The notes beneath the pieces were generated by a model. It was given only the letters and a program-made list of their open reading frames with translations. It did no database searches and had not been told where the DNA came from. DNA of 64,000 nt, taken from contig JAPOZT010000014.1 of NCBI GenBank assembly GCA_026705925.1, positions 1 to 64,000 of the forward strand, in the 5' to 3' direction. Shown here piece by piece: positions 19,752 through 41,801 of this stretch (the first letter of the stretch is position 1; each line of letters starts with the position of its first letter). Origin of the DNA: Gemmatimonadota bacterium (GTDB lineage Bacteria > JAAXHH01). A program made the translations under genes and the position numbers.

Positions 19752-19765
19752 GTTTCGGCGTCTCC

Positions 19766-19819
19766 AGGCGGACCAGGCGGACTAGGCGGGCAAGGCGGGC
19801 CAGGCGGGCAAGGCGGTCC
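19766..19819. repeat. 9-bp minisatellite x6 (AGGCGGACC type) between polX and nth
   Basis: Six consecutive 9-bp units based on AGGCGGACC fill the polX-nth spacer. The same unit, as a rotation of ACCAGGCGG, occurs at 29847-29909 and 41771-41797. Confidence 0.85.
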
Positions 19820-21981: not shown

Positions 21982-22036
21982 CGGTTCTCCAGTCTTGCAT
22001 TACGCTGGCTGACGGTGTTTCGGCCGACGGCGTTCC

Positions 22037-22124
22037 GGCTGTTCGGCTGTTCGGCTGTTCGGCTGTTCGGCTGTTCGGCTGTTCGGCTGTTCGGCTGTTC
22101 GGCTGTTCGGCTGTTCGGCTGTTC
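22037..22124. repeat. Perfect octanucleotide tandem repeat (GGCTGTTC)11
   Basis: Eleven exact, uninterrupted copies of GGCTGTTC span 88 bases. Perfect identity implies recent expansion, so copy number is likely to vary between cells or strains. It sits upstream of the receiver-polX transcript and about 190 bases upstream of the feo promoter. Confidence 0.97.
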
Positions 22125-22196
22125 GAATATAAAGGTGGGAGTCTGCCGCAAACAAGGGGATTGTTTCGGTCCTGCACATGGTCCAAGCGGGACCCG

Positions 22197-29846: not shown

Positions 29847-29909
29847 CCGCCTGGTCCGCCTGGTCCGCATCGTCCGCCTGGTCCGCCTGGTTCGCCTGGT
29901 CCGCATCGT
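29847..29909. repeat. 9-bp minisatellite x7 (CCGCCTGGT type)
   Basis: Seven adjacent units, of which four are exactly CCGCCTGGT; the reverse complement is ACCAGGCGG. It lies in the cysC 5' leader. Confidence 0.9.
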
Positions 29910-36152: not shown

Positions 36153-36208
36153 CCGCCTGTCCCGCCGCGCCTGACCGCTCGCCCTCGTAGCCCGGCCCCC
36201 CGCCCGCG

Positions 36209-36265
36209 TCACCTGGTCCGCCCCGTCCTGACCCCCTCGACCGCCTCACCTGGTCCGCCCCGTCC
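36209..36265. repeat. 20-bp direct repeat after the RND permease gene
   Basis: TCACCTGGTCCGCCCCGTCC occurs exactly at 36209-36228 and 36246-36265. It contains CCTGGTCCGC, the reverse complement of GCGGACCAGG, the core of the dispersed 9-bp minisatellite. Confidence 0.85.
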
Positions 36266-36399
36266 GGACCATACAAACTCCTTGCCCGGACCCGTGTATT
36301 CCCCCATCTTTCAAACAGGTGCGGCAACGCCGGAAGGACCGGGAACAGGGTACTTGCGGCGCATGGAATCCGAGACGGCTCAACGAACAGAGGAACGCC

Positions 36400-39300
36400 T
36401 TGCCCTTCCACGCCGATCTGCATCTCCATTCCCATTACTCGAGAGCGACCAGCAAAAACCTGAACCTGGAGCACCTGTACAAGTGGGCCCAGCTGAAGGG
36501 TATCCGGGTGGTGGGCACCGGGGATTTCGTTCACCCGGGCTGGATGGATGAGCTGGAGGAGAAACTGCAACCGGCCGAGGAGGGCCTGTTCCGGCTGAAA
36601 CCCGAGCTCGAGCGGACGATGGACGGCCAGGTGCCGGCCGCCTGCCGGGCGCCGGTCCGTTTCATGCTGACGGTCGAGATATCGAACATCTACAAGCGGC
36701 TCGGTCGCGTGCGGAAGGTGCATAACATCATCCTGACGCCCGGATTCGAAGCCGCCAAATCCCTGCAGGCCCGCCTGGGCGCCATCGGCAATATCCAATC
36801 GGACGGACGGCCCATCCTGGGACTGGACTCCCGGGACCTGCTGGAGATTACCCTTGAGACCGATCCCATGGCCTGCCTCATCCCCGCCCACATCTGGACG
36901 CCCTGGTTCTCGGCCCTGGGATCCCGGGGAGGATTCGACAGCATATCGGACTGTTACGGCGACCTCACGGAGCACATCTTCGCCGTCGAGACCGGCCTTT
37001 CGTCCGATCCGCTCATGAACTGGCGGCTGGAGCAGCTCGATCCCTACGTGCTCGTGTCCAACTCCGATGCTCATTCGCCCGGAAAGCTGGGCCGGGAAAC
37101 CACCCTGTTCGATACGTCCTGCGACTATCCCGCGATCTACAGCGCCCTGTCCGACCCGGAAGACGTGGGACTGACCGGAACGGTGGAGTTCTATCCCGAG
37201 GAGGGCAAGTACCACTATGACGGGCACAGGAAGTGCGAAAGAAGGATGCACCCGAAGGAGACGATCGGCGCGAAGGGCCTGTGTCCGGATTGCGGCAAGC
37301 CCGTGACCGTGGGGGTCATGGCCCGCGTGGAAGAACTTGCGGACCGCGATGAGGGCAAAAAGCCCCCCCGGGCGCGCCACTTCTTCAGCGTGATACCCCT
37401 GCCCGAGATCATCGGGGAGGCGAAACAGGTCGGCCCCGGTACCAAGACGGTAGATAGGGTCTATCAGGCCATGGTTTCGCGCCTGGGCAGCGAACTCGAC
37501 ATCCTCCTGGACATCCCGGAAGACGACATCGCGCAGGTCGCAGGTACCCTGATCGCCGAGGGCATTCGCCGCATGCGCGTCGGAGAAGTGGATATCCTTC
37601 CGGGGTATGACGGAGACTACGGCGTGATCAAGTTGTTCAACACGGAGGACCGGCTCGGAAGCGACTCGCAGATCGCACTGCTTGAGGATTTACCCGTGAA
37701 GGAGAAGAAGCCGTTACGAGCGGACCCCGTCCCGGCCGATACGCCGGAGGTGGAGGAGGACGAAATGCCGGTGGTGGAGGAAGCGTCCCCGGCAAGCACC
37801 AACGGAATGGCCGAAGTCGCGGTTCCGGCGCCAGCCGTGACCGTCCCGGAAGCGCCTGATGCTTCGGCAGACGCGACCTCGATGAGCGGTCCGCTCAATG
37901 AAGATCAGTTGAAGGCCGTAACGCACCGCGAGGGACACCTGCTCATCGTGGCGGGGCCCGGCACCGGAAAGACCCACACGCTGACCCACCGGATGGCGTA
38001 CCTGGCGCGTCACGAAACCACGCCCGGCCGCCTGCTGGCCGTGACTTTTACCAACAAGGCCGCCGGGGAGCTGAAAGCGCGACTGGGCATACTGCTCGAC
38101 GGGCAGGCCGGCACGGACGCCATGGTCGGCACTTTCCACGGTATCTGTCTCGCCTTGATGCGCCAGTGGTCCCGCCACGCAAGCATCCCCTTCAGCCTGA
38201 GCGTGGCGACGCCCGACGACCAGGAGCGGCTGGCCCGTGCGCAGTGGCCGCTGGACAACGCCGTGCAGCGGAGGAGGCGGCTGGAGGAGGTCGCTCGATG
38301 GAAGGCGTCGGGCCGCAGTGGTGAAATCCCGGAAGCGGTCTCGGCGTACACCCGCCTGCTGCGGCGGCACGGGCTGCTGGATTTCGACGACGTCATCCTG
38401 GAAACCACCAAGCTCCTGAGGTCGGACGAACGGTTCCGGCAGAGCGTGCACAAGCGGTTCCACTACGTTTTCGTGGACGAGTACCAGGACATCAACCCGG
38501 CCCAGCACGACCTGCTGAAGATCCTGGTGAAAGGCGGCGCACAGATTACCGCAATCGGCGATCCCAACCAGGCGATCTACGGTTTTCGCGGAGCGGACAC
38601 CCGTTACTTCCACTCCTTCGAGGACGATTTCCCGGGAGCTCAGGTACGTTACCTCAGCGAGAACTACCGTTCCGCGGCTACCTTGCTCGACGCCTCGTCC
38701 CAGGTCATGAGCGCTTCCGGCGCTTCCACGGCGCCGCCGCCGGTCGCCGCGCTTTACGTCCAGGGGCGCCTGGTCATCCGGGAGACCCGGTCGGACCGGG
38801 CCGAAGCCGAGTACGTCGTGCACCAGATCGAACGCATGGTGGGCGGCACCAGCCATTTCTCCCAGGACTCGGGGCGGCTGGAACACGGGGCGGACCCGGG
38901 CGAGGAAAGATCCTTCGGCGACATCGCCGTACTCTACCGGGTGAACAGTCAGAATACCGCCCTGGTGGAGGCCTTTGAGCGCAGCGGCATACCGTATCAC
39001 GTAGCAGGGGATACGTCCCTCATCAACAGGCCGGGCGTGCAGGAGATCGTTACCCTGCTTCAACTGGGCGACGGACGGACCGTCACCACCGGTTCGGCGC
39101 TGCGGTGCCTGTCTTCGACGATCGACGGGCTGGGGGACCGGACCGTGGAACTCATCGAGGAACTCTGGAAAAAACGCAACCAGATCACGATCGACCACGT
39201 GGCGGAGTTGATGGATTATCCCCGCCTGCTCATGAAACGTTCCAGGATCGGTGTGGAAGCCCTGTTGAGTGACCTGAAGACGATCAATTCGGACCTGGAG

Positions 39301-39852
39301 AAGCGGACGGCGGCCCACATCTTGGAAAACCTGGCGCGCTCTTCCATCTGGGACAAGCTGAAGTGGCGTTATCCCAGGGCGGATGACAGCTTGCGCGAGC
39401 TTACCCGGTACGCCCGAATTGAAACGGAATTGCCGGTCATGCTCGACAAGCTGCTGCTCAGCCAGGAATACGACGCTTTCGAAGAAGCTTCGGAGCATGT
39501 GCATCTCATGACCCTGCACGCGGCCAAGGGACTCGAATTCCCGGTCGTCTTCGTCGTGGGGTGTGAAGACGGCCTGGTGCCCCTGCAACACGGCGGCGCG
39601 GTATCGGACGTGGAAGAGGAGCGCCGGCTGTTTTACGTGGCCATGACCCGTGCGAAAGAACGGCTTTACCTGGTTCGGTCCGGGAAACGCATGCTGTTCG
39701 GGGAGGTGCGCACCACCCGGCCGTCGCCCTTCCTGACCGACATCGAAGAGCAGCTGAAGCAGTACGACCGTCCGCAAGGTCCACACAAGCCGGACCGGCG
39801 GCGGAAAAAGGCTAAATCCAAGCCGACGAACCAGTTGAGCCTGTTCGGCTAG
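36400..39852 (+). CDS. Endonuclease Q-like PHP nuclease fused to UvrD/Rep-type DNA helicase
   Basis: The predicted 1150-residue protein joins two repair enzymes. Residues 1-430 match the endonuclease Q family: PHP metal motif HADLHLHSHYSRATSK, GTGDFVHPGW, HIWTPWFSALGS, VSNSDAHSP, and a zinc site (HxxC near 276-279, CxxC at 295-298). In archaea and Bacillus, endonuclease Q cuts 5' of uracil, hypoxanthine, xanthine and abasic sites. After an acidic Pro/Ala linker (about 433-498) comes a superfamily 1A helicase with AGPGTGKTHT (about 518-527), VDEYQDIN (about 692), GDPNQAIYGFRGAD and TLHAAKGLEF. TTG 36400, preceded by GAGGAA, matches the family N-terminus; GTG 36319 is the longer alternative. 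The likely role is to nick at deaminated bases and unwind from the nick. Confidence 0.88.
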   Translation: MPFHADLHLHSHYSRATSKNLNLEHLYKWAQLKGIRVVGTGDFVHPGWMDELEEKLQPAEEGLFRLKPELERTMDGQVPAACRAPVRFMLTVEISNIYKRLGRVRKVHNIILTPGFEAAKSLQARLGAIGNIQSDGRPILGLDSRDLLEITLETDPMACLIPAHIWTPWFSALGSRGGFDSISDCYGDLTEHIFAVETGLSSDPLMNWRLEQLDPYVLVSNSDAHSPGKLGRETTLFDTSCDYPAIYSALSDPEDVGLTGTVEFYPEEGKYHYDGHRKCERRMHPKETIGAKGLCPDCGKPVTVGVMARVEELADRDEGKKPPRARHFFSVIPLPEIIGEAKQVGPGTKTVDRVYQAMVSRLGSELDILLDIPEDDIAQVAGTLIAEGIRRMRVGEVDILPGYDGDYGVIKLFNTEDRLGSDSQIALLEDLPVKEKKPLRADPVPADTPEVEEDEMPVVEEASPASTNGMAEVAVPAPAVTVPEAPDASADATSMSGPLNEDQLKAVTHREGHLLIVAGPGTGKTHTLTHRMAYLARHETTPGRLLAVTFTNKAAGELKARLGILLDGQAGTDAMVGTFHGICLALMRQWSRHASIPFSLSVATPDDQERLARAQWPLDNAVQRRRRLEEVARWKASGRSGEIPEAVSAYTRLLRRHGLLDFDDVILETTKLLRSDERFRQSVHKRFHYVFVDEYQDINPAQHDLLKILVKGGAQITAIGDPNQAIYGFRGADTRYFHSFEDDFPGAQVRYLSENYRSAATLLDASSQVMSASGASTAPPPVAALYVQGRLVIRETRSDRAEAEYVVHQIERMVGGTSHFSQDSGRLEHGADPGEERSFGDIAVLYRVNSQNTALVEAFERSGIPYHVAGDTSLINRPGVQEIVTLLQLGDGRTVTTGSALRCLSSTIDGLGDRTVELIEELWKKRNQITIDHVAELMDYPRLLMKRSRIGVEALLSDLKTINSDLEKRTAAHILENLARSSIWDKLKWRYPRADDSLRELTRYARIETELPVMLDKLLLSQEYDAFEEASEHVHLMTLHAAKGLEFPVVFVVGCEDGLVPLQHGGAVSDVEEERRLFYVAMTRAKERLYLVRSGKRMLFGEVRTTRPSPFLTDIEEQLKQYDRPQGPHKPDRRRKKAKSKPTNQLSLFG

Positions 39853-41052: not shown

Positions 41053-41801
41053 CCCCGATCTTCGAACCCTATCTGCTCATACCGGTCGCCGTCCTGCTCT
41101 CGATGCTGATGCTACTGGCGATTCCCGTGACGATCTCCTTCTCGGTCGTTCGCCGGGAAGGCTTCTCGGGCAGGATCACCTTCGGGTGGCTGTTCGGCCT
41201 GCTCCGCATCTCCCCTTCCATACCGACCGGCGTCCGTCGAAAGCGAAAACGCAGGCGCCCGGTCCGCGCACCGGCCGAGTCGGTCGAGTCAGGTGGATCG
41301 GATGTACCAGGCGAACCAGGCGAACCAGGCGAATCGAAGGCCCCGTCCGCGCGCACTTCGGCCGACGAAAAGGCCGACGGGAAACGTGCCCCGGCGGAAC
41401 GCTTGCGCCGGGTACTAAAGACGAGGGGATTCGTCCGGGGCGTGCTCAGATTCCTGCGTGATATGGCCCGATGCGTGCGTTTCGTGTCCTTGCACGTCGC
41501 GGGCCGTATCGGGCTGGACAATCCCTGTGACACGGGCCGCCTCTGGGGCACTTTCTGCGCCTTGACCGGATTCCTCCATGGCGCCGAGCGCGTGAGGCTG
41601 CGGGTCGAACCCGATTTCGACGAGGCGGTATTCGAACTGGACGGACGGGGCGAGATCCGTATCGTCCCCGTCACCCTGTTCCTTCCCTTCATCCGGTTCT
41701 TCCTTGCGCCCGCCACGCTGCGCGCGGCCTGGGCGATGTCCAGGCGGACCGGACGGACCCGGCCGGACGGGCGGACCAGGCGGACCAGGCGGACCGGGTA
41801 A
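41049..41801 (+). CDS. DUF2953 (YtfI-like) membrane protein
   Basis: The 250-residue protein has one N-terminal membrane helix (about 9-29), a variable linker with PGEPGEPGE encoded by a 9-bp repeat, and the DUF2953 core (VRFVSLHVAGRIGLDNPCDTGRLWGTFCALTGFL, then RLRVEPDFDEAVFELDGRGEIRIVPVTLFLPFIRF). TTG 41049 overlaps the gerW stop as TTGA, so translation is probably coupled. Partnership with a GerW protein is conserved in Firmicutes; the function is unknown. The last ~20 residues are Arg/Thr/Gly-rich, encoded by the 9-bp minisatellite at 41742-41797, and look like a repeat-derived tail. Confidence 0.8.
   Translation: MTPIFEPYLLIPVAVLLSMLMLLAIPVTISFSVVRREGFSGRITFGWLFGLLRISPSIPTGVRRKRKRRRPVRAPAESVESGGSDVPGEPGEPGESKAPSARTSADEKADGKRAPAERLRRVLKTRGFVRGVLRFLRDMARCVRFVSLHVAGRIGLDNPCDTGRLWGTFCALTGFLHGAERVRLRVEPDFDEAVFELDGRGEIRIVPVTLFLPFIRFFLAPATLRAAWAMSRRTGRTRPDGRTRRTRRTG
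41307..41333. repeat. 9-bp repeat x3 (CCAGGCGAA) in the DUF2953 linker
   Basis: Three exact in-frame copies encode Pro-Gly-Glu triplets. The unit is one base from the ACCAGGCGG minisatellite unit. Confidence 0.85.
41742..41797. repeat. 9-bp minisatellite (GCGGACCAG) at the DUF2953 3' end
   Basis: The array is exact or nearly so at 41771-41797 (three units) and degenerate at 41742-41770. It encodes an Arg/Thr/Gly tail and runs to the stop codon. The unit is a rotation of ACCAGGCGG. Confidence 0.85.

What the first reader, a model, noticed from the sequence alone, without database searches (positions are those of the whole stretch)
36400..39852. Endonuclease Q fused to a UvrD-type helicase in one polypeptide
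Residues 1-430 match the endonuclease Q family (PHP motif, GTGDF, VSNSDAHSP, HxxC/CxxC zinc site); the rest is a complete SF1A helicase joined by an acidic linker. Endonuclease Q nicks at deaminated bases and abasic sites. A built-in helicase would let the same protein nick and then unwind or displace the damaged strand, a self-contained repair route. Variants of this fusion may exist in databases under the name UvrD helicase, but I know of no biochemical study of the fused form.
Basis: partly seen in the sequence, partly recalled or inferred. Interest (0 to 1): 0.78.

Follow-up and report, generated by a model that had tools for sequence, protein, structure and literature searches.

The report
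Clamp-linked endonuclease Q–UvrD helicase fusion
One bacterial protein joins an enzyme that nicks DNA beside deaminated bases to a DNA-unwinding motor and carries likely docking tags for the replication clamp; the same fused protein occurs in many bacterial phyla, and we found no study of it.

Summary
Confirmed. Window 36400-39852 (+) encodes one 1150-aa protein (TTG start): an endonuclease Q (EndoQ) domain, a disordered acidic linker and a complete UvrD/PcrA-type helicase. Every EndoQ metal and base-pocket residue tested is present, both halves model as their known folds, and both are under purifying selection. The fusion is in 11 of 11 sampled congeners; outside the genus 27 of 71 EndoQ loci from a 288-genome survey are fused; named records place it in 13 phyla. 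The fused helicases group apart from 21 ordinary UvrD/PcrA.

Main addition: a sliding-clamp-type motif at the extreme C-terminus (QLSLF here; loose form in 76 of 87 fused proteins, 2 expected). A second copy (46 of 86) lies in the linker, where stand-alone EndoQ often ends. The host's ordinary UvrD lacks it.

Most likely mechanism (inferred): clamp-docked alternative excision repair. EndoQ nicks 5' of the deaminated base; the helicase, moving 3'->5' on the template, peels off the lesion strand while polymerase extends the 3'-OH. Polymerase, flap nuclease and ligase are still needed, so it is not self-contained. No study of the fused form was found in the papers searched. New variant of a known kind.

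The parts
36390..36394 (+). Shine-Dalgarno-like GAGGA before the TTG start
   Evidence: sequence read; inference
36400..39852 (+). EndoQ-UvrD fusion gene, 1150 aa (TTG start, stop included)
36400..37665 (+). Endonuclease Q domain (model residues 1-422): PHP metal site, base pocket, HxxC/CxxC zinc site, C-terminal part
   Evidence: PfuEndoQ alignment; residue mapping; model; Foldseek 5zb8_C TMt 0.90
37669..37683 (+). Internal clamp-type motif QIALL (residues 424-428), near the place where stand-alone EndoQ often carries a C-terminal clamp-type motif
37666..37887 (+). Disordered acidic/proline-rich linker (residues 423-496)
   Evidence: pLDDT <50; fastest-evolving part
37888..39777 (+). UvrD/PcrA-type SF1A helicase (about residues 497-1126)
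   Evidence: key motif positions invariant
39832..39846 (+). C-terminal clamp-type motif QLSLF (residues 1145-1149)

Best explanation
A clamp-docked alternative excision repair enzyme. (1) The protein binds the beta sliding clamp by its C-terminal QLSLF, with a possible second contact at QIALL in the linker (inferred from motifs). [quoted passage not shown] residues conserved here). (3) The tethered UvrD-type motor loads at that nick on the intact template strand; moving 3'->5' there, it travels downstream and displaces the 5' end that bears the lesion (inferred from the polarity of UvrD/PcrA). (4) A clamp-bound polymerase extends the 3'-OH, a flap or 5' nuclease removes the displaced strand and ligase seals it (inferred). 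The fusion would hand the nick from cutter to motor without release.
For: EndoQ residues whose change abolishes activity in Pyrococcus (E76, H84, H139; PMC8307549 passages), pocket residues G169 and S171, and D193/H195 are present here and identical in 51 of 51 aligned fusions (seven complete named fusions not in that alignment). Helicase Walker A, DExQD, Q and arginine positions checked: 51 of 51. Folds: 5zb8_C TMt 0.90 rmsd 2.3, UvrD 4c30_D TMt 0.84. dN/dS 0.06-0.09 (EndoQ) and 0.11-0.14 (helicase) in four comparisons. C-terminal Q-x-x-[LMI]-[FLIM] in 76 of 87 fused (2.0 expected) and Q[LMI]xLF in 54 of 87 (0.07 expected); other ORFs 12 and 5 of 1116, the looser test there without M at the end. 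Internal copy 46 of 86 against 2.1 expected, 37 at exactly +15. Complete helicase ORFs next to a separate EndoQ ORF end in the strict motif in 6 of 6. Archaeal EndoQ has a C-terminal PIP box (PMC4858679 passages) and PCNA binding stimulates it (PMC8307549 passages). EndoQ leaves 5'-P and 3'-OH (PMC4357722 passages).
Against: No biochemistry. Clamp binding is inferred from sequence only; 11 of 87 fused proteins lack even the loose C-terminal form. The window's internal motif is the weaker QIALL, and 40 of 86 fusions have no loose internal match. The own genome also has two UDG matches, so this need not be its only uracil route. Nine EndoQs inside the otherwise fused group have no helicase beside them. 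The relative placing of the two halves in the model, and which strand the helicase takes, are not shown.
Confidence: 0.62

Rival explanations
1. Search-and-cut: the helicase half acts first. Clamp- or fork-bound, it opens or scans DNA and feeds single-stranded or frayed DNA to EndoQ, which nicks deaminated bases near the replisome. Downstream repair is by ordinary polymerase displacement.
For: EndoQ also acts on single-stranded DNA and a link to the replication complex has been proposed (PMC8307549 passages); clamp-type motifs.
Against: Archaeal EndoQ flips its base out of duplex DNA by itself (PMC8307549 and PMC11354406 passages), and a neighbouring helicase of this type is missing in 41 of 71 EndoQ loci. 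Nicks in unwound single strands near forks would make breaks (inference).
Confidence: 0.17
2. Anti-phage defence: a nuclease-helicase that attacks phage DNA with uracil or other altered bases, by analogy with Gabija (nuclease GajA plus UvrD-like GajB).
For: PADLOC GajB models match the helicase half (best 290 bits, E=8.8e-87); an antiviral role was suggested for Bacillus EndoQ (PMC8307549 passages).
Against: The PcrA model scores higher (384.5 bits), so the GajB match is general UvrD homology. No GajA-like gene among the five neighbours scanned, one upstream and four downstream. Present in 11 of 11 sampled congeners, purifying selection, and no match of this EndoQ domain at E<=1e-5 in 72,556 plasmid or 50,697 phage records: a housekeeping pattern.
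Confidence: 0.06
3. Dual-incision repair: EndoQ cuts 5', EndoV cuts 3', and the fused helicase removes the short piece, as in the right-hand model of the EndoQ discovery paper.
For: That model explicitly calls for a helicase (PMC4357722 section 29 read).
Against: Genomes with the fusion usually lack EndoV: 24 of 28 (one genome standing for the own genus, in which 12 of 12 lack it), against 118 of 203 genomes counted as without EndoQ (Fisher p=0.006; with the fused side collapsed to 24 families, 3 with EndoV, p=0.007; relatedness otherwise not modelled) and 24 of 41 with stand-alone EndoQ (p=0.018).
Confidence: 0.05
4. Two unrelated jobs in one chain: the helicase is a second PcrA-like motor for recombination or replication conflicts and EndoQ rides along by a neutral fusion.
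For: EndoQ and helicase are separate neighbouring genes in 6 of 80 named loci (five Omnitrophota, one Desulfobacterales), and nine EndoQs within the fused group have no neighbouring helicase.
Against: One helicase group is tied to EndoQ in 13 named phyla. Of 17 genomes with stand-alone EndoQ searched with this helicase, the best hit was fetched for 14 and all 14 fell with ordinary UvrD/PcrA; the other 3 were not fetched.
Confidence: 0.1

Closest known systems
Endonuclease Q (PfuEndoQ, TkoEndoQ, B. pumilus EndoQ; TIGR00375/COG1379)
   Same: Nearly full-length homology, all tested metal and pocket positions, four-ligand zinc site (HxxC/CxxC instead of CxxC/CxxC), same fold, clamp-type motif position kept inside many fusions.
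   Different: Fused through a linker to a helicase; insertions of 17 and 7 residues around the E120-H135 part (ORF numbering); scores below the TIGR00375 cut-off.
UvrD/PcrA/Rep SF1A helicases
   Same: Helicase motifs and fold.
   Different: Groups apart from 21 ordinary UvrD/PcrA (SH-aLRT 100); lacks the C-terminal extension of the host's own UvrD (Tudor-like by recall) and ends in a clamp-type motif; lies behind a nuclease.
Archaeal EndoQ-PCNA alternative excision repair
   Same: Clamp-linked single 5' incision at deaminated bases.
   Different: There the strand is proposed to be displaced by polymerase and cut by Fen1 (PMC4357722), or handled by an unnamed helicase with FEN1 (PMC8438529 passages); here a helicase is built in and the clamp would be the bacterial beta clamp.
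Gabija GajA-GajB
   Same: Nuclease plus UvrD-like helicase as a logic.
   Different: Different nuclease and genomic setting; no membership.

Membership tests
Endonuclease Q | Metal ligands Glu76, His84, His139 (and H8, H10, D193, H195) of PfuEndoQ | tested here: met
   E120, H135, H191, H35, H37, D250, H252 in ORF numbering; 51 of 51 except H8, 50 of 51. Roles of H8, H10, D193, H195 are recalled or read from the family motif
Endonuclease Q | Base-pocket G169 and S171 | tested here: met
   G226, S228; 51 of 51
Endonuclease Q | Separate four-ligand zinc-binding domain | tested here: met
   H303, C306, C322, C325; 50, 51, 51, 51 of 51
Endonuclease Q | EndoQ fold | tested here: met
   5zb8_C TMt 0.90, rmsd 2.3
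Endonuclease Q | NCBIfam TIGR00375 curated cut-off 326.6 bits | tested here: not met
   175.5 bits; 0 of 288 surveyed genomes reach it, stand-alone EndoQs included, while 2 of the 3 matching control genomes do (B. subtilis and two methanogens match). The cut-off seems to fit a narrower set of members
Endonuclease Q | 5' incision at dI, dU, abasic sites | not testable with these tools
   needs purified protein
SF1A UvrD/PcrA-type helicase | Helicase motifs and full-length UvrD domains | tested here: met
SF1A UvrD/PcrA-type helicase | Equivalog status as PcrA, UvrD or Rep (TIGR01073/01075/01074 cut-offs) | tested here: not met
   384.5 bits against 911.2 for PcrA, 316.4 against 1144.45 for UvrD, 327.1 against 951.45 for Rep; separate group: a sister subfamily
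Beta-clamp client | Q-x-x-L-F type motif at an accessible end | tested here: met
   QLSLF before the last residue; loose form in 76 of 87 fusions. The consensus itself is recalled
Beta-clamp client | Physical clamp binding | not testable with these tools
   no complex prediction or assay available
Gabija | GajA partner gene next to GajB | tested here: not met
   five neighbouring genes scanned (one upstream, four downstream): AcrB-type transporter, MsrA, YtfJ-like, DUF2953, IlvD-type

The most novel reading that the evidence does not exclude
A widespread bacterial repair enzyme without a described function: a single chain that grips the replication clamp at two points (one tag inherited from EndoQ, one from the helicase, perhaps filling both pockets of one clamp dimer), cuts 5' of deaminated bases and unwinds the lesion strand, serving as the main deaminated-adenine repair route in lineages of at least 13 phyla that mostly lack EndoV.
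Probability: 0.4. Interest if true: 0.78.

Novelty: new variant of a known kind. Interest (0 to 1): 0.63.

Why it matters
EndoQ is described in the papers read as Euryarchaeal with 'a few bacteria', and how its nick is processed is called elusive (PMC8438529 passages). A conserved natural fusion to a helicase with clamp-type tags suggests what comes next, and gives one protein on which nick, strand release and clamp dependence can be tested together. It also marks a UvrD subfamily that may work at the sliding clamp.

Tried and rejected
Gabija/defence reading: set low on context, presence in all sampled congeners and absence from the plasmid and phage collections; with the full-length protein, 0 of 2957 matching plasmid records cover 80%. 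UDG replacement: not supported; 277 of 288 genomes have a UDG match; 4 of 69 EndoQ genomes (fused plus alone) and 6 of 203 others lack one (p=0.28). EndoQ as a whole against EndoV: no significant exclusion (23 of 74 against 85 of 203 have EndoV, p=0.13); only the fused class differs. Two weak TIGR00375 matches (G155, G234) were counted as without EndoQ in these tests. Gene neighbourhood recurring across phyla: none recognised among the 14 largest clusters of 74 fused loci; the largest were mostly antisense or overlapping frames of the gene itself. Sigma-70 scan upstream: nothing. Papers: searches showed none on the fusion (one search listed 30 of 70 papers; the one paper was seen as a listing only); some served the EndoQ literature; yqxK gave irrelevant hits. 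Passages were read in PMC4858679, PMC6202378, PMC11354406, PMC8307549, PMC8438529, PMC3820547, PMC12448304, PMC8744996, PMC5045986 and PMC4357722 (of the last also section 29); all others were listings. The first patterns for the internal motif missed about half of the proteins because they required a proline; redone. The second structure job and the viral fold library were not used.
Full report
What is there. The frame 36319-39852 (+) is open for 1177 codons. The natural start is most likely TTG at 36400: GAGGA precedes it, and the protein then begins like its relatives. 'ORF' numbers count from 36319, 'model' numbers from 36400 (ORF = model + 27).

EndoQ half. The first ~420 residues align almost end to end with Pyrococcus furiosus EndoQ (5zb8, E=5e-49). 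Mapping residue by residue gives E76->E120, H84->H135, H139->H191, G169->G226, S171->S228, D193->D250, H195->H252 (ORF). PMC8307549 (passages) reports that E76A, H84A and H139A abolish activity and that H139, G169 and S171 keep out normal bases. D193 is asparagine in the 7k30-7k33 chains as aligned. The zinc site is HxxC/CxxC in place of CxxC/CxxC. In an alignment of 51 fusions (50 named relatives plus the window) these columns are invariant, except the PHP H8 and the first zinc ligand, 50 of 51 each. The NCBIfam cut-off is not reached (175.5 of 326.6 bits), but none of 288 surveyed genomes reaches it, stand-alone EndoQs included.

Helicase half. PF00580 and UvrD_C match over nearly their whole length, PcrA is the best solved relative, and the Walker A, DExQD, Q and arginine positions checked are invariant in the 51. 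The host genome has another, ordinary UvrD (G000:C3, 738 aa) that ends in a Tudor-like extension as I read it (recalled) and has no clamp-type motif at its end (locus L217).

Model. AlphaFold2 with the 51-row alignment gave mean pLDDT 84.3, pTM 0.78; residues 423-496 (model) and most of the tail are below 50. Foldseek finds UvrD structures (4c30_D TMt 0.84, rmsd 3.7) and PfuEndoQ (5zb8_C TMt 0.90, rmsd 2.3). The mutual placing of the halves was not assessed.

Selection. Against three of the 11 congeners and the named relative L033, dN/dS is 0.06-0.09 for EndoQ, 0.11-0.14 for the helicase, and 0.33-0.48 for the linker.

How widespread. In the genus 11 of 11 other sampled genomes have the long frame. 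Of 288 bacterial genomes sampled from the own genus outwards, 87 have a TIGR00375 match. I fetched 74 of these loci; not fetched were the window's own, eight further congeners, four truncated or weak matches, and second copies. Of the 71 outside the genus, 27 are fused, 41 alone (no such helicase on the same strand in the fetched stretch, in a few cases under 2 kb downstream), 2 classed adjacent (one a 99-aa fragment at a contig end) and 1 cut. In named genomes, at least 581 stretches encode a relative and only the best 80 were kept (biased towards the window): 69 fused (three with a frame break in the helicase part, several cut by contig ends), 6 adjacent, 4 alone (one, L037, ends 75 bases before its contig does), 1 cut. 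The fused ones fall in 13 named phyla plus KSB1 and unassigned bins; phylum names come from record titles and single bins may be mislabelled. This contrasts with the published picture of EndoQ in 'a few bacteria' (PMC8438529 and PMC4858679 passages).

History. In a tree of 100 helicases (73 fused, 6 adjacent, 21 ordinary; 14 further fused ones left out as near-copies or damaged), the 21 ordinary UvrD/PcrA form one side of a branch with SH-aLRT 100 and all fused and adjacent ones the other (quick method, no bootstrap, about 60 rows of unequal composition). In the EndoQ tree of 125 rows, a starred group (SH-aLRT 95) of 90 rows holds all 74 fused, all 7 adjacent and 9 alone; 35 of 44 stand-alone EndoQs lie outside (one of the 9, L181, has 10% of the columns and cannot be placed). 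Simplest reading: one joining of EndoQ with this helicase, spread widely, with later splitting or loss in places (Omnitrophota have two neighbouring genes). The trees are midpoint- or outgroup-rooted and do not prove the direction; the labels need 13 changes on the EndoQ tree. Of 17 EndoQ-alone genomes searched with the helicase, the best hit of 14 was fetched and all 14 are among the 21 ordinary ones.

Clamp-type motifs. The protein ends in QLSLFG. The Q-L-[S/D]-L-F consensus of beta-clamp clients is recalled; PMC4858679 (passages) states that archaeal EndoQ has a C-terminal PIP box and that bacterial EndoQ homologs carry the beta-clamp consensus near their C-terminus, so the motif as such is in print for EndoQ. 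Among 87 complete fused proteins, 54 have Q[LMI]xLF and 76 have Qxx[LMI][FLIM] in the last 14 residues; shuffled tails give 0.07 and 2.0. Other frames of at least 250 aa in the same loci give 5 (strict) and 12 (Qxx[LMI][FLI]) of 1116 (antisense frames included). Stand-alone EndoQs: 21 and 24 of 45. Where the two are separate neighbours, all 6 complete helicase frames end in the strict motif, and 2 (strict) or 5 (loose) of 8 EndoQ frames do. In the fusion a second copy lies just after the EndoQ core: 46 of 86 (one more lacks the core pattern), 2.1 expected, 37 exactly 15 residues after GYDGxYG; in the window it is QIALL. In stand-alone EndoQs the same search finds 24 of 44, at 9-24 residues. 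Relatives are not independent, so the counts are descriptive. The pattern reads as two clamp-binding proteins joined, each keeping its tag, the inner one often decayed.

Mechanism. EndoQ cuts 5' of the damaged base and leaves a 3'-OH and a 5'-phosphate (PMC4357722 passages). UvrD and PcrA move 3'->5' (PMC12448304 and PMC8744996 passages). On the intact template, 3'->5' means away from the 3'-OH and underneath the damaged strand, so the motor would peel off exactly the strand to be removed and run ahead of the polymerase that extends the 3'-OH at the clamp. Shown: domain identity, conserved active sites, motifs. Inferred: activity, clamp binding, strand choice, handover.

Fit with the literature. 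The discovery paper proposes either polymerase displacement plus flap cutting, or EndoQ plus EndoV double cutting with a helicase (PMC4357722 section 29); a review lists a helicase with FEN1, polymerase and ligase after EndoQ (PMC8438529 passages). So a helicase step has been proposed before. Fused genomes mostly lack EndoV (24 of 28, one genome standing for the own genus, where 12 of 12 lack it), against 118 of 203 genomes counted as without EndoQ (p=0.006; relatedness only partly handled), which favours a helicase acting after a single nick. Searches found no paper on the fusion; subscription papers are mostly not held, and I assume that domain databases list the architecture, so the claim is 'not studied in what was searched', not 'never seen'.

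Setting. In the window the neighbours are an AcrB-type transporter, MsrA, a YtfJ-like protein, a DUF2953 protein and an IlvD-type dehydratase: no repair operon. In six deltaproteobacterial loci the gene points away from frames that cluster as the clamp gene dnaN and as a GyrB-like gene (order seen in L055, L059, L065). Pfam confirms DnaN in L055 and an RdgC-like gene between them in L065, weakly in L055; GyrB is recalled from the sequence. One lineage only, so weak evidence.

Verdict. It is a widespread, apparently undescribed variant of EndoQ with a built-in helicase and probable clamp docking.

Noticed in passing
L055, L059, L065, L088, L100, L106 (upstream 3-5 kb): In these six deltaproteobacterial loci frames clustering as dnaN (clamp) and GyrB-like lie upstream on the opposite strand (order seen in three). 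Pfam confirms DnaN in L055 and an RdgC-like gene in L065, weakly in L055.
   Followed up: partly
window 19764-19816, 29847-29904, 36192-36270, 41306-41333, 41743-41798: A dispersed 9-base repeat family (GACCAGGCG): 36 matches with up to 2 mismatches in the window against 5.4 expected, and 30 exact 16-base double units across the genome, nine in a row on contig C11. The tool's reversed control is uninformative because the repeat reads the same backwards. Some copies lie inside coding frames.
   Followed up: partly
window 22036-22125: Perfect 8-base repeat CGGCTGTT, 11 copies: a possible mutable site.
   Followed up: no
L163, L197 (G142, G278): Long divergent fusions (1340 and 1408-aa frames, EndoQ part 42-43% identical to the best query) without the C-terminal clamp-type motif.
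   Followed up: no
G102: Genome with two nearly full-length TIGR00375 matches on different contigs.
   Followed up: no
window 36400-39852: PADLOC GajB models hit this protein strongly, so defence-system annotators may mislabel such fusions as Gabija.
   Followed up: partly
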